Source of the DNA: Roseivirga echinicomitans
GTDB lineage: Bacteria > Bacteroidota > Bacteroidia > Cytophagales > Cyclobacteriaceae
Reading direction: 5' to 3'
DNA: 64,000 nt
Assembly (NCBI RefSeq): GCF_001592935.1
Contig: NZ_LRDB01000004.1
Span: 124,001 to 188,000 of the forward strand
Part shown: one piece after another, positions 3,613 to 31,017 of the stretch
Numbering within the stretch: position 1 is the stretch's first letter
Layout of the letters: every line of letters starts with the position of its first letter
Notes under the pieces: generated by a model
The model's input: only the letters and a program-made list of their open reading frames with translations
Database searches by the model: none
Told to the model about the DNA's origin: nothing
Made by a program: the position numbers and the translations under genes

Positions 3613-3747
3613 TTTCTGATGGGTTAGTGTTTTGGAAAAATTAGATTGACATTCTTCGTGCCAACAATAAGCGAAATTAATGTTTCTGCTTAGAACTCAA
3701 ATGGAATTATATGCGGATTGCTAATATAAACCCAAAGAGAAAAAAAA

Positions 3748-4078
3748 GATACAAGCCGATAAGCCGGGTTCTGTTCCTCAACTAGGTCAAGGCCCTTATC
3801 ATTTATCTAGCCCCGTCATTACTGGCGGGATCCATCTGCCTACCCTCCTGCATTGGGCGGGAACCCTCAAAAGCAGGTATATGTGACATTTCACCGCATA
3901 GAGTTTACCTGGTTTCACTACAGCATTACCTGTACATACTTTCTGTTGCACTTGTCCTCTCCGCTTTCGCTAAAGCTAAGGCGGATGACGGCCGTTAGCC
4001 GCTATGCTTCCCTATGGTGCCCGGACTTTCCTCTCCGATTTTGATTACTCTAGTCGCAGCGATAAGGTGGCTTGTATC
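3748..4078 (-). ncRNA. rnpB: RNase P RNA (class A)
   Basis: On the minus strand the conserved 5' core reads GGAGAGGAAAGTCCGGGC and the 3' end reads ACAGAACCCGGCTTATCGGC, both hallmarks of bacterial RNase P RNA. The ends GATACAAGCC and GGCTTGTATC pair to form helix P1 and fix the boundaries at 4078 and 3748. The RNA is the catalytic subunit that trims the 5' leader of tRNA precursors. A run of seven T on the minus strand (3741-3747) directly after P1 should end transcription. An open reading frame can be read across it on the plus strand, but that is an artefact. Confidence 0.97.
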
Positions 4079-6042: not shown

Positions 6043-6781
6043 TTCAACGATTAGTCTGCAAAGGTTAAGCAGCTTAGTAAAGCTCACACTTCATCTCAAC
6101 CTAAAACGAATGCTCTATACTGCCTGTATTGGTTTGGGCTTTGCCATATTATTTATAGTGATATACTGGAATATGGATGTTTACTACAATGATATGGTCT
6201 TCAGTCGACATGAATACTTGTTTGTTCTGTCACTCTATATTTCAGGCTTTATTTTCACTGGTAGTTGCTTTATTCGTTTCCGCTCTAAGCAAGGAACTAT
6301 TGACTATTTAATGCTCCCAGCCAGTAATACAGAAAAGTTTATTAGCGAGTTTTTACTTGCCACTTTGGTTTACCCCTTGTTCTTTTTACTAAGCTATTGG
6401 CTGTTTTCAGTTATCGTGAATGGTGTTTTGAATAATATTTCTCAAGCCTTTTTTATGCCTTTTAGTTTCAATATAGCACCCTATGGTTTAGACTTTATGG
6501 TTTACTTTTTCATTCAAACCATATTTCTTTTTGGGGCAGCCTGTTTTCAAAAGATTCCTTTGATGAAAATAGTATTATGGGCTTTATTGGTTGCTGCCAT
6601 TATTGCTTTGTTATTCTATACTGCTTGGTTGAATTTTGATTATTCGAAAGGAACTGATGAACTGGCAATGAATAAAATCTTCTATAGTTCACTGGTCTAT
6701 AACTGGCACTTTTTAACAATTCCAGTTGGCCTAGTTTTCTGGCTGTTGGCATTTTTGAAATTAAAGGAAAAAGAGGCTTAA
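6035..6781 (+). CDS. ABC transporter permease-like membrane protein
   Basis: Starting at ATG 6035 (MNNSTISLQRL), this gives a 248-residue protein that overlaps the ATPase gene by 8 bases. An upstream in-frame start at 5999 exists but would lengthen the overlap and is less likely. About six hydrophobic segments are visible, for example GLGFAILFIVIYW, YLFVLSLYISGFIFTGSCF and VLWALLVAAIIALLFYTAW. The strand order and overlap make it the membrane partner of the ATPase. No substrate-specific motif is recognised. Aromatic-rich helices and small size match ABC-2-like permeases of Bacteroidota. Confidence 0.85.
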   Translation: MNNSTISLQRLSSLVKLTLHLNLKRMLYTACIGLGFAILFIVIYWNMDVYYNDMVFSRHEYLFVLSLYISGFIFTGSCFIRFRSKQGTIDYLMLPASNTEKFISEFLLATLVYPLFFLLSYWLFSVIVNGVLNNISQAFFMPFSFNIAPYGLDFMVYFFIQTIFLFGAACFQKIPLMKIVLWALLVAAIIALLFYTAWLNFDYSKGTDELAMNKIFYSSLVYNWHFLTIPVGLVFWLLAFLKLKEKEA

Positions 6782-6782
6782 G

Positions 6783-7142
6783 ATGGAATTCGAAGATAAC
6801 AAATCCATATTCCTTCAAATAGCTGATATCATGCTTTCTATGATTATCAGGAAGCAATGGAAAGAAAATGAAAGAATTCCTTCTGTACGTGACTTGGCTG
6901 TGGAGTTGGAGGTAAACCCGAATACTGTAATGCGCTCTTATACCCACCTTCAAGAATCTGAGATTATTTATAACAAAAGAGGAGTGGGGTATTTTGTAGA
7001 GAAGAATGGCTGTGCGAAGGCCAAAGGGCTAAAGAAAGCTGAATTTTTGACCCAAGACTTACCGCAAATTTTTGATAAAATGGATGTATTGGACATGTCC
7101 ATGGATGAAATAGTTGAATTGTTTAACAACCGAAAATCATAA
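6783..7142 (+). CDS. GntR-family (YtrA subfamily) transcriptional repressor
   Basis: The 119-residue protein has an N-terminal winged helix with the GntR signature: IPSVRDLAVELEVNPNTVMR followed by YTHLQESEIIYNKRGVGYFV. The short C-terminal part of about 45 residues, without an effector domain, marks the YtrA subfamily, which regulates adjacent ABC transporter operons (known for the family). It lies one base downstream of the permease stop. The palindrome at 5177-5200 is the natural candidate binding site. Its being inside the operon it probably controls implies autoregulation (inference). Confidence 0.92.
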   Translation: MEFEDNKSIFLQIADIMLSMIIRKQWKENERIPSVRDLAVELEVNPNTVMRSYTHLQESEIIYNKRGVGYFVEKNGCAKAKGLKKAEFLTQDLPQIFDKMDVLDMSMDEIVELFNNRKS

Positions 7143-25653: not shown

Positions 25654-25665
25654 AATTGAAAATTC

Positions 25666-25696
25666 TTTGATTAGAAAAACAATCTACTTTCCTTTG
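25666..25696 (+). promoter_or_regulatory. promoter candidate of the ilv leader and operon
   Basis: TTTG at 25666-25669 is followed after exactly 19 bases by TTCCTTTG at 25689-25696, a one-mismatch version of TAnnTTTG. Transcription would start near 25701, only a few bases before the ATG of the first leader peptide at 25705. I see no second promoter between the two attenuators, so one transcript would carry both. Confidence 0.5.
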
Positions 25697-25704
25697 AACC
25701 AACA

Positions 25705-25758
25705 ATGAGAGCAAATACTATTATTATCACCCAAATTATTACTGTCGTGAAAACATGA
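25705..25758 (+). CDS. ilv leader peptide 1 (17 residues)
   Basis: The 17-residue frame reads MRANTIIITQIITVVKT. It contains five Ile, two Val and four Thr codons, clustered between 25717 and 25749. This is the composition expected of an attenuator that senses branched-chain aminoacyl-tRNAs. It is followed directly by a G-rich antiterminator arm and a terminator. Its stop codon lies two bases before that arm, so a ribosome ending there would mask it, while one stalled in the Ile codons would leave it free. Confidence 0.88.
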   Translation: MRANTIIITQIITVVKT

Positions 25759-25759
25759 T

Positions 25760-25800
25760 GGGAGGGGATGATATAGTTTAAAATATCGAGCGCCTTTCCC
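25760..25800 (+). promoter_or_regulatory. antiterminator of ilv attenuator 1
   Basis: GGGAGGGG at 25760-25767 can pair with CCTTTCCC at 25793-25800, giving 8 base pairs including two G-U. The second segment overlaps the 5' arm of the terminator stem, so the two structures exclude each other. The stop codon of the first leader peptide ends at 25758, just before the first arm. Confidence 0.65.
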
Positions 25801-25821
25801 AATCGGAAAGGCTTTTTTTTT
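25792..25821 (+). terminator. intrinsic terminator of ilv attenuator 1
   Basis: GCCTTTCC (25792-25799) pairs perfectly with GGAAAGGC (25805-25812) around a five-base loop and is followed by nine T. It lies downstream of the leader peptide and well upstream of ilvE, so it would end transcription before the structural genes when the leader is translated freely. Confidence 0.9.
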
Positions 25822-25831
25822 GTACTCCTGT

Positions 25832-25856
25832 GTCATCCTGAACTTGTTTCAGGATC
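25832..25856. repeat. short interspersed palindrome between the two ilv attenuators
   Basis: The sequence GTCATCCTGAACTTGTTTCAGGATC contains the inverted repeat TCCTGAA/TTTCAGGA. It resembles the short degenerate repeats often seen between genes in Bacteroidota genomes. It separates attenuator 1 from attenuator 2, and might mark how the tandem arrangement arose. Copy number elsewhere cannot be judged from the window. Confidence 0.5.
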
Positions 25857-25912
25857 CGTTAGAAAAACATAAACATAGAGAAGTAGATAAAAGACAAAGA
25901 GATTAAGCATAG

Positions 25913-25969
25913 ATGTTAAAGTACGCAGTCATTATTACAGTAGTCATTATTACCACCCGGACGGGGTGA
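25913..25969 (+). CDS. ilv leader peptide 2 (18 residues)
   Basis: The 18-residue frame reads MLKYAVIITVVIITTRTG. It has four Ile, three Val, one Leu and four Thr codons, clustered from 25928 to 25954. Its stop codon at 25967-25969 lies inside the antiterminator arm 25963-25971. That is the geometry of ribosome-mediated attenuation: a ribosome reaching the stop covers the arm and the terminator forms; one stalled in the Ile/Val run leaves the arm free. Confidence 0.88.
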   Translation: MLKYAVIITVVIITTRTG

Positions 25970-26012
25970 AATAGGATACTATTGTCAATGCATTAGAAGC
26001 CTTTTTCACCCC
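25963..26012 (+). promoter_or_regulatory. antiterminator of ilv attenuator 2
   Basis: GGGGTGAAA at 25963-25971, overlapping the leader peptide stop, is complementary over nine bases to TTTCACCCC at 26004-26012. That segment includes part of the 5' arm and the loop of terminator 2. The structures are therefore mutually exclusive, as needed for a switch. Confidence 0.75.
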
Positions 26013-26029
26013 GTGAGAAAGGCTTTTTT
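25998..26029 (+). terminator. intrinsic terminator of ilv attenuator 2
   Basis: A 12-bp stem, AGCCTTTTTCAC (25998-26009) with GTGAGAAAGGCT (26013-26024), contains one U-G pair and a three-base loop. It is followed by T at 26024-26029. It resembles terminator 1 in the stem core (AGCCTTT/AAAGGCT) and lies about 190 bases before the ilvE start. Confidence 0.88.
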
Positions 26030-26216
26030 CATGCCTTAATGTCAAAATCAGCAACTGAAAACAGTCAGAAAGCAGGATGTTGAAGTTGTAAGTAGTCTTG
26101 ATGTAAGATGTTGAAATACAGGGTTTATCAAAAATAATAACCATGCATTGAGATTGTAGAAGTAAAAAAATTCATAACCAGAATGAAAAAGAGGCAAGAT
26201 AATTTTAAACCATAAA

Positions 26217-27110
26217 ATGATGTATTACGGATCAAATACCACAGTTTTTTTAGACGGCCAGTGGCTGAAAGCCTCAGAGGCCAGCGCTAGTTTGTACAGC
26301 CAAAGTATGCACTACGGAAGTGGTGTCTTCGAAGGTATTCGGGCTTACGATGTCGATGGGACCCCATCGGTATTCAAAGCAGAAGCGCATTATGAAAGGT
26401 TGCTGAGTTCAGCGGCTGTTATGCACATGCCTTTTGATTATTCGGTAGACCAACTGACAGCGCTCACTTACGAGTTGCTTGAAAGAAATCAGCTGACTGA
26501 TGCCTATATCCGTCCCTTGATTTATTTGGGTGAAAACATGGGTTTGGGCCCAGTGGATCAATCTCATTTGTTTCTCTGCGCTTGGGAATGGGGGCGATAC
26601 TTAGGTGATAAAAGCCTGAATGTAATGGTTTCTTCCTACGAAAGACCGAATCCTCGTTCTGTGCCTGTTGCAGCCAAAGTGACGGGGCATTATACCAACT
26701 CCATTTTAGCCACTACGGAAGCCAAGCGTAAAGGCTTTGACGAGGCTTTGCTTTTAGACGAAAACGGTTCAGTGGCCGAAGGCAGTGGTGCCAATTTCTT
26801 CTTTGAACATGATAAAGTGCTTTACACACCACCATTGGGGAATATTCTTCCAGGAATCACTAGAGAAACGGTAATGGACATTGCCAGAGAACTAGGGTAC
26901 GAGGTAGTGGAAGCCTATTTTCCTCCTGAAAAAGTGAAGGGAACCGATGGCGCCTTCTTTACTGGAACAGCGGTAGAAGTTGCTGGAATTCGTTTGCTCG
27001 ATGGCAATCCTTTTCGCTTGCCTTGGGAAGAAACTATCGGCTATCAAGTGGCCAAAGTCTATCAAAACTTGGTAAGAAAGCCTTCAAAAACACAATTAGT
27101 AAATACCTGA
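26217..27110 (+). CDS. ilvE: branched-chain amino acid aminotransferase
   Basis: The 297-residue protein is a fold-type IV PLP aminotransferase, which makes the last step of Val, Ile and Leu synthesis from the 2-oxo acids with glutamate. Visible motifs are [14 protein letters not shown] near the N-terminus, the PLP lysine region [20 protein letters not shown] and the phosphate-binding EGSGANFF. IlvE normally has about 300-310 residues, so it is complete. It is the first gene of the ilv operon and overlaps ilvD by one base (TGATG). The preceding attenuators control it, so regulation by Ile/Val availability is expected. Confidence 0.95.
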
Positions 27111-30513: not shown

Positions 30514-31017
30514 ATGGAACAAGCATATACACTTTCAATTTTCTCAGAAAACAGTGTGGGGTTATTGAACCGCATCACTTCCATACTGACCAGACGGCAT
30601 TTAAATATTGATAGTATTAACAGCTCTGAATCAGAGAGTTCAGGGATTTATCGATTTACAATTGTAGTGAAAACCACCGAGGCTCAGGTAAAGAAACTTG
30701 TACTTCAACTTGAAAAGCAAGTAGAGGTAATGAAGGCGGTGTACCATACCGATAGTGATACGGTATTTCAGGAGATCGCTTTGTATAAAATATCGACAAG
30801 GTCGATTTCAGAAGGGAATCTGGTAGAAAAGCTGATTCGAGATAACAATGCTCGGATACTTTCTGTGGAATCGGATTTCATGATTATAGAGAAAACAGGG
30901 CATAAGGAAGAAACGCAGGAGTTGCTCGACTTTCTGAGTCCTTATGGTGTACTGGAGTTTGTCCGTTCAGGGCGAGTTTCAGTAACGAAGCCGATGGGTG
31001 AATTGGAAGGGATTTAG
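30514..31017 (+). CDS. ilvN: acetolactate synthase, small regulatory subunit
   Basis: The 167-residue protein starts with an ACT domain (LSIFSENSVGLLNRITSILT, then RHLNIDSINSSESESSGIYRFTI). It continues with the C-terminal AHAS small-subunit domain, with LVEKLIRDNNARILSVESDF and a closing FLSPYGVLEFVRSGRVSVTK. It binds valine and gives feedback inhibition to IlvB, its operon neighbour one base upstream. Length matches the IlvH/IlvN family (about 160). Confidence 0.95.
   Translation: MEQAYTLSIFSENSVGLLNRITSILTRRHLNIDSINSSESESSGIYRFTIVVKTTEAQVKKLVLQLEKQVEVMKAVYHTDSDTVFQEIALYKISTRSISEGNLVEKLIRDNNARILSVESDFMIIEKTGHKEETQELLDFLSPYGVLEFVRSGRVSVTKPMGELEGI

What the first reader, a model, noticed from the sequence alone, without database searches (positions are those of the whole stretch)
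25666..26029. Two tandem Ile/Val/Thr leader-peptide attenuators in front of one ilv operon
Seen in the sequence: two complete attenuators lie in series before ilvE-D-B-N-C-A. Unit 1 has a promoter candidate, a 17-residue leader with five Ile and two Val codons, an antiterminator arm (25760-25767 with 25793-25800) and a terminator with nine T. Unit 2 has an 18-residue leader with four Ile, three Val, one Leu and four Thr codons. Its antiterminator (25963-25971 with 26004-26012) overlaps the leader stop, and it has its own 12-bp terminator. Only one promoter candidate precedes both. Single ilv leaders are known in bacteria; a serial pair is unusual and would work like a two-step gate with a steeper response or two thresholds. 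Thr codons in both may also let the leaders report on the IlvA substrate.
Basis: partly seen in the sequence, partly recalled or inferred. Interest (0 to 1): 0.78.

Follow-up and report, generated by a model that had tools for sequence, protein, structure and literature searches.

The report
Twin amino-acid attenuators before ilv operon
A marine bacterium's operon for making isoleucine and valine is preceded by what look like two complete RNA on/off switches in a row, both reading the same amino acids, and many relatives have the same doubled arrangement, which suggests a two-step gate.

Summary
Confirmed and extended. Upstream of ilvE-D-B-N-C-A in a Roseivirga genome lie two leader-peptide attenuators in series (leaders 25705-25758 and 25913-25969). 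Each also has a protector hairpin made by leader codons, so the full three-state anatomy is there. They are the only two hits of the detector in 64 kb; 0 of 2000 shuffles give one. Ten of 17 Roseivirga genomes with ilvD have the pair. Single units are common in the family, and same-signal pairs occur in other genera and families; on an IlvD tree at least 4 changes are forced. In five other pairs only 13-19 nt separate terminator 1 from leader 2, so those share a transcript. Antiterminator arms fit their own terminators far better than swapped ones. Caveat: between terminator 2 and ilvE lies a conserved, rigidly spaced block, kept in five genus genomes without attenuators; it may be a promoter that bypasses both gates. 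Thr enrichment is specific to Roseivirga and Thr sensing is unproven. No experiment was done. New variant of a known kind.

The parts
25666..25696 (+). promoter candidate P1, TTTG-N19-TTCCTTTG (predicted start about 25701, about 4 nt before the leader 1 ATG)
   Evidence: 9 of 10 consensus letters, same in G004 and G006; -7 box position -12 to -5 taken from a passage of PMC9723704
25705..25758 (+). leader peptide 1, MRANTIIITQIITVVKT
   Evidence: sequence; 9 Roseivirga homologues aligned
25717..25777 (+). protector (1:2) hairpin of unit 1: 25717-25732 with 25764-25777, inner 25742-25749 with 25754-25761
   Evidence: MFE -18.6, z -2.77; consensus fold of 9 sequences, 4 pairs of this hairpin with two-sided changes
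25760..25800 (+). antiterminator of unit 1: 25760-25767 with 25793-25800
   Evidence: own-versus-swapped test over 89 units
25792..25821 (+). intrinsic terminator 1, 8-bp stem and nine T
25831..25856 (+). repeat-like TGTCATCCTGAACTTGTTTCAGGATC in the spacer between the units
   Evidence: only copy in the window within 3 mismatches; its 17-nt core occurs 4 times in the genome
25913..25969 (+). leader peptide 2, MLKYAVIITVVIITTRTG
   Evidence: sequence; the 18 nt ACAGTAGTCATTATTACC are invariant in 9 of 9 Roseivirga sequences
25937..25985 (+). protector (1:2) hairpin of unit 2: ACAGTAGT 25937-25944 with ACTATTGT 25978-25985, inner CACCC 25954-25958 with GGGTG 25964-25968
   Evidence: 94.4% of outer-helix cells pair, one-sided changes only; fold z only -1.72, 12 of 200 shuffles as good
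25961..26014 (+). antiterminator of unit 2: 25961-25975 with 26000-26014, contains the leader stop
   Evidence: 81.8% of cells pair, 37.5-51.2% when slid; 4 pairs with two-sided change, a count that 135 of 500 shuffles reach, while the covariation score is reached by 0 of 500; -27.6 kcal/mol, z -5.79
25996..26029 (+). intrinsic terminator 2
   Evidence: -18.3 kcal/mol, z -6.63
26076..26207 (+). conserved block between terminator 2 and ilvE: TGTA at 26087 and 26155, box ATAATTTT from 26199; possible second promoter/operator P2
   Evidence: TGTA to box exactly 44 nt in 20 of 21 genomes, shuffles 0.16 of 21; the pattern was derived from these same sequences
26217..27110 (+). ilvE
   Evidence: PF01063
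27107..28783 (+). ilvD
   Evidence: PF00920, PF24877
28785..30512 (+). ilvB
   Evidence: TPP enzyme domains
30514..31017 (+). ilvN
   Evidence: PF10369, PF22629
31136..32212 (+). ilvC
   Evidence: PF07991, PF01450
32294..33559 (+). ilvA
   Evidence: PF00291, PF00585

Best explanation
Two complete ribosome-mediated transcription attenuators act in series on one transcript, and both read the charging of tRNA-Ile and tRNA-Val. In each unit a translating ribosome decides the RNA fold: at the leader stop it covers the 5' arm of the antiterminator and the terminator forms; stalled at Ile/Val codons it breaks the protector hairpin, frees that arm, and the antiterminator forms; with no translation the protector hairpin leaves the terminator free. 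Polymerase must pass both terminators, so leak should multiply and the response should be steeper. In Roseivirga a conserved block after the second terminator may add a promoter that escapes both gates. Shown by sequence: anatomy, conservation, pairing. Inferred: termination, ribosome stalling, one transcript through both units in this genome, the steeper response, and the second promoter.
For: Only two detector hits in 64 kb and 0 of 2000 shuffles; low false-positive rate in relatives' DNA. Pair present in 9 of 9 Roseivirga genomes that have this ilvE and enough upstream DNA (a tenth, G007, is cut by its contig end), and in G013 before ilvD. 89 units in 73 loci, chosen without using pairing: own antiterminator mean -15.15 against permuted mean -10.44 (sd 0.31, lowest of 5000 -11.58) and shuffled arm -7.67 kcal/mol. 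Leader plus downstream arm folds better than synonymous recodings, -21.72 against -16.79, p 1.3e-14, 95 units that had passed the antiterminator filter. Spacers of 13-19 nt between the units in five other tandem loci. Leaders carry more Leu where leuC lies downstream: 0.35 of Leu+Ile+Val (10 operons) against 0.19 (42), p 0.004; near kin collapsed, 0.33 (8) against 0.21 (31), p 0.015.
Against: No transcript data. In this window 91 nt lie between the end of the T run and leader 2, so a weak promoter there is not excluded, although the best score in the spacer, 7 of 10, is no better than shuffles of upstream DNA. The conserved block at 26076-26207 may be a promoter that bypasses both units. In 5 of 17 Roseivirga genomes with ilvD the detector finds no attenuator within 900 nt, and one (G012) has unit 2 only. 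Unit 1 pairs less specifically: own pairing ranks 6, 22 and 35 of 89 in G000, G004 and G006. The unit 2 protector hairpin alone folds only slightly better than shuffles.
Confidence: 0.85

Rival explanations
1. Only unit 2 is active; unit 1 is a decaying older unit or belongs to a separate short transcript, and unit 2 has its own promoter.
For: Unit 2 has the stronger antiterminator and terminator and an 18-nt core invariant in 9 of 9; G012 has unit 2 with only a terminator-like stem and no leader where unit 1 would be.
Against: Unit 1 keeps leader and terminator in all 10 Roseivirga pairs seen, and the nine aligned have two-sided changes in its protector hairpin; the better promoter-like match is before leader 1 (9 of 10), the spacer match (7 of 10) equals shuffles; in five other pairs there is no room for a promoter between units.
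Confidence: 0.1
2. The main promoter of the operon is the conserved block after terminator 2, and the attenuated transcript is a minor supplement.
For: Block found in 21 genomes, 20 with exact 44-nt spacing, among them five genus genomes with ilvD in which no attenuator was found.
Against: In seven tandem loci outside this clade terminator 2 lies about 25-40 nt from the gene, leaving no room for the block (20-nt overlap subtracted for six of them); the box in this window fits TAnnTTTG poorly, no -33 element is seen, and the best promoter score there is at the shuffled level.
Confidence: 0.25
3. The two units read different signals (for example Thr in one and Ile/Val in the other), as in mgtCBR.
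For: Thr makes 68 of 312 leader residues counted in Roseivirga against 83 of 1472 elsewhere.
Against: Both leaders carry Ile, Val and Thr in similar numbers; several Thr codons fall in the RNA helices; leaders of other genera have few Thr.
Confidence: 0.1

Closest known systems
Leader-peptide attenuation of trp/his/ilv/leu operons of enteric bacteria (classical type; anatomy recalled, trp summarised in PMC3641672 section 11)
   Same: Short leader rich in the regulated amino acids; protector, antiterminator and terminator hairpins; upstream of the biosynthetic operon.
   Different: Two whole units in series, in Bacteroidota; Thr-rich leaders in Roseivirga; leader 1 start codon probably about 4 nt from the transcript start.
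Tandem attenuators of Salmonella mgtCBR (PMC3641672; abstract and section 11 read)
   Same: Two leader ORFs in one leader mRNA, each part of an attenuation device.
   Different: mgtM and mgtP read different signals (ATP, proline), and the paper says its stem-loops do not resemble intrinsic terminators; here both units look set to read the same amino acids and each ends in an intrinsic terminator.
Tandem T-box riboswitches before ilv and leu genes of Bacillota (PMC12452182; passages read)
   Same: Doubling of an amino-acid-reading RNA gate before branched-chain amino-acid genes.
   Different: T-boxes bind tRNA directly and need no leader ORF or ribosome (recalled).
Leader-peptide attenuation clues in Flavobacterium psychrophilum (PMC9723704; passages read)
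   Same: Same phylum; 'strong clues' for leader-peptide attenuation upstream of amino-acid biosynthesis operons.
   Different: The passages name no tandem pair, and 'ilv' has 0 hits in the main text; supplements were not read.

Membership tests
Classical leader-peptide transcription attenuator | short ORF enriched in codons of the regulated amino acids before the operon | tested here: met
   both leaders; only two hits in 64 kb; conserved in nine Roseivirga genomes
Classical leader-peptide transcription attenuator | intrinsic terminator downstream of the leader | tested here: met
   the simple scan lists terminator 1 only
Classical leader-peptide transcription attenuator | antiterminator exclusive with the terminator, its 5' arm at the leader stop | tested here: met
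Classical leader-peptide transcription attenuator | protector hairpin between leader codons and the antiterminator arm | tested here: met
   for unit 2 the outer helix shows one-sided changes only and a weak z
Classical leader-peptide transcription attenuator | regulated termination in response to charged tRNA | not testable with these tools
   needs RNA or reporters
Tandem attenuator leader (mgtCBR-like) | two attenuators on one transcript | tested here: inconclusive
   spacers of 13-19 nt in five other pairs; 91 nt and no RNA data in this window
Tandem attenuator leader (mgtCBR-like) | two different signals | tested here: not met
   by codon content only: both leaders Ile/Val(/Thr) rich
Rfam families of leaders and tRNA-reading RNAs | covariance model match | tested here: not met
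   no match here at gathering score; at E up to 1 only a sub-threshold sau-41 match, 23.3 bits against 80, E 0.33

The most novel reading that the evidence does not exclude
Same-signal tandem leader-peptide attenuation is a recurrent, convergent design of Bacteroidota ilv operons, the counterpart of tandem T-boxes in Bacillota, that multiplies two read-through probabilities; in Roseivirga it is layered with an unattenuated second promoter, and the leaders favour the Val codon GTC so that they report one tRNA-Val isoacceptor.
Probability: 0.3. Interest if true: 0.68.

Novelty: new variant of a known kind. Interest (0 to 1): 0.56.

Why it matters
The classical picture of attenuation is one leader and one terminator per operon. 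A natural set of same-signal pairs, singles and absences within one family makes it possible to ask directly what doubling buys (lower leak, steeper response, wider range), and to compare it with the doubling of T-boxes in Bacillota. It also gives a sequence-based set of some 95 candidate leader-peptide attenuators before ilv genes of Bacteroidota, for which the paper searches made here found only general clues.

Tried and rejected
Chance origin: rejected by shuffles and flank scans. Known RNA family: none. Structured-RNA reading of the block after terminator 2: consensus folding gave no pair and column-pair counts gave no convincing helix, so a DNA element is favoured but not shown. Strict pattern search for that block in 19 genus genomes: 3 hits at ilv and 1 elsewhere; it missed most known ilv copies, this window's included, so it says little about specificity. 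E. coli-type promoter scan: 4 found against 2.1 expected in shuffles; not suited to Bacteroidota. Attenuators near leuC and homoserine dehydrogenase of this genome: no convincing leader in about 1.5 kb flanks, which is no test of the true operon starts.

Counts corrected or dropped rows. The detector gave 2 units in 19, 1 in 58 and 0 in 34 of 111 upstream regions, four of which were under 120 nt long; I moved L113 to single (its first hit lies in what looks like a coding gene) and added L065 (second unit seen, but its pairing is weak, -5.9), so 19 again. L081 unit 2 and L085 unit 1 are weak members; L067 is kept as single; L261 is read as single. In one search, 23 of the 30 loci were scanned, three of them from genomes already counted. 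The Leu test had left out seven rows without leuC, five of them Leu-rich; one search includes them (p 0.004 instead of 0.0004). 'No leuC' means none in the 5-12 kb of downstream DNA held. The GTC count read one ilvD out of frame; one search corrects it (132 of 1289 instead of 136 of 1321). Spacers of 0 and 5 nt (L115, L117) rest on doubtful leader starts and are not used; a GTG start would give about 26-30 nt.

PMC9413887 (passages) concerns his genes and tandem T-boxes.

Full report
What was claimed and what is there. Exact places: leader 1 25705-25758, leader 2 25913-25969. Folding confirms antiterminator 1, terminator 1, antiterminator 2 and terminator 2; the second antiterminator is longer than stated (25961-25975 with 26000-26014).

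Chance. A detector for an Ile/Val/Leu-rich short ORF followed within 60 nt by an intrinsic terminator finds these two sites and nothing else on either strand of the 64 kb, and nothing in 2000 dinucleotide shuffles of 25654-26216. In 899,406 bases (both strands counted) downstream of ilvD starts in 40 relatives it gives 3 hits, with pairing of -5.4 to -7.0 kcal/mol only.

A third hairpin. Both units also have a protector (1:2) hairpin. In unit 2 leader codons ACA GTA GT pair with ACTATTGT past the stop: 8 of 8 pairs in five of nine genomes, 6 or 7 in the other four on the alignment used; changes are on one side only, and the hairpin's z is only -1.72. This pairing may explain why 18 nt of leader 2, ACAGTAGTCATTATTACC, are the same in nine of nine genomes, synonymous positions included. 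In unit 1 leader codons pair with the stretch after the stop, and the consensus fold of nine genomes has two-sided changes in four pairs of that hairpin. Over 95 units that had passed the antiterminator filter, leader plus downstream arm folds at -21.72 kcal/mol on average against -16.79 for synonymous recodings (p 1.3e-14). These look like classical three-state attenuators.

Antiterminators. For 89 units in 73 loci, picked without looking at pairing, the arm at the leader stop pairs with its own terminator arm at -15.15 kcal/mol on average; permuted partners give -10.44 (sd 0.31, lowest of 5000 permutations -11.58), shuffled arms -7.67. Not every unit does well: 16 of 89 own pairs rank first, 51 are in the top tenth, and Roseivirga unit 1 ranks 6, 22 and 35 in G000, G004 and G006. 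On nine Roseivirga unit-2 sequences 81.8% of antiterminator cells pair against 37.5-51.2% when slid; four pairs change on both sides, which 135 of 500 shuffles equal, while the covariation score is reached by none.

Conservation in the genus. The nearest named relatives are Roseivirga ehrenbergii (IlvE 93%) and R. seohaensis (92%). Of 19 genus genomes, 10 hold this ilvE and 17 hold ilvD at the cut-off used. The pair is in all 9 with ilvE and enough upstream DNA and in G013 before ilvD: 10 of 17. G007 shows unit 2 before its contig ends; G012 shows unit 2, with a terminator-like stem but no leader where unit 1 would be; in G001, G002, G003, G005 and G009 the detector finds none in 900 nt.

Beyond the genus. 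Of 111 upstream regions (9 Roseivirga, 22 named loci, 80 fetched by place), 77 have at least one unit and 19, after two corrections by eye, have two: Roseivirga 9, G114, G154, G094, G034, G032, G027, G129, G162, G107 and Flavobacterium beibuense. Of 23 loci of the class scanned later (three from genomes already counted), L247, L249 and L252, from two other families, also look tandem. On an IlvD tree of 58 rows (20 tandem, some near-identical) the label needs 7 changes, at least 4 forced by well-supported branches; gain and loss cannot be told apart and transfer is not excluded. In these pairs both leaders are rich in Ile and Val, in some also Leu.

One transcript. The candidate promoter before leader 1 fits 9 of 10 letters with the expected 19-nt spacing; over 77 loci the mean best score before the first leader is 8.04 against 7.06 for shuffles, a modest difference. 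The spacer here (91 nt after the T run) has nothing above shuffles. In five other pairs (L050, L064, L083, L085, L095) it is 13-19 nt from stem end to ATG, too short for a promoter of that type. With the -7 box at -12 to -5, as mapped in F. psychrophilum (PMC9723704, passages), transcription would start about 4 nt before the ATG of leader 1.

Signal. Leader composition tracks gene content: the Leu share of Leu+Ile+Val is 0.35 in 10 operons with leuC downstream and 0.19 in 42 without it in the DNA held (p 0.004; near kin collapsed p 0.015). Roseivirga leaders carry unusual Thr (68 of 312 residues against 83 of 1472 elsewhere). Because several Thr codons lie in the helices and Thr does not recur elsewhere, Thr sensing stays open. 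GTC makes 87 of 182 leader Val codons against 132 of 1289 in ilvD of the same 36 species (higher in 33 of 35 with leader Val codons); this genome has one tRNA-Val each with GAC and UAC among the 30 of 34 tRNA loci read. Pairing with the downstream arm may explain GTC as well as isoacceptor reading would.

A third conserved piece. Between terminator 2 and ilvE there is a block with two TGTA-like sites 66-68 nt apart and a box like ATARGTTT exactly 44 nt after the second, in 20 of 21 genomes (16 other Roseivirga with and without attenuators, this one, G114, G094 and G059; not matched in G154), against 0.16 of 21 in shuffles and 5 of 98 other upstream regions. The pattern was drawn from the same sequences, was loosened to fit odd members, and three sequences are near copies. 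No consensus RNA fold was found. Since five genus genomes without a detected attenuator keep it, it may well hold a promoter; if so the operon here has an unattenuated route too. This is the main reason to doubt a simple two-step gate.

Known systems. mgtCBR has tandem attenuators for two different signals, called a singular example in 2012 (PMC3641672, abstract and section 11). Tandem T-boxes are listed before ilv genes in Bacillota (PMC12452182, passages). The present case joins the leader-ORF device of the first to the doubling of the second. The ten paper searches showed no same-signal tandem leader-peptide attenuator, in a library that lacks most subscription journals. Verdict: real, conserved, a new variant of a known kind.

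Noticed in passing
window about 26076-26207; also upstream of ilvD in G001, G002, G003, G005, G009: Conserved block with two TGTA-like sites and a TAnnTTT-like box at a rigid 44-nt spacing, of unknown function; possible regulated second promoter of ilv operons in Roseivirga and close genera.
   Followed up: partly
leaders of 36 species: GTC is 48% of leader Val codons (87 of 182) against 10% in ilvD of the same species (132 of 1289); across all leaders it is most often followed by ATT.
   Followed up: partly
window 25831-25856; G016 ilvA-thrA gap (L143 about 6517-7044): Repeat-like CCTGAACTTGTTTCAGG (or a close form) sits between the two attenuators and recurs in the gap after ilvA of G016.
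   Followed up: partly
window 25697-25704: Only 8 nt lie between the promoter box and the leader 1 ATG, so leader 1 may be translated from a nearly leaderless mRNA; best matches lie 6-11 nt from the ATG in 6 of 9 Roseivirga genomes.
   Followed up: no
L126 (G190) about 1296-1441: Two overlapping Ile-rich leader-like ORFs share a single terminator.
   Followed up: no
window 3744-4078 (-): Bacterial RNase P RNA class A.
   Followed up: no
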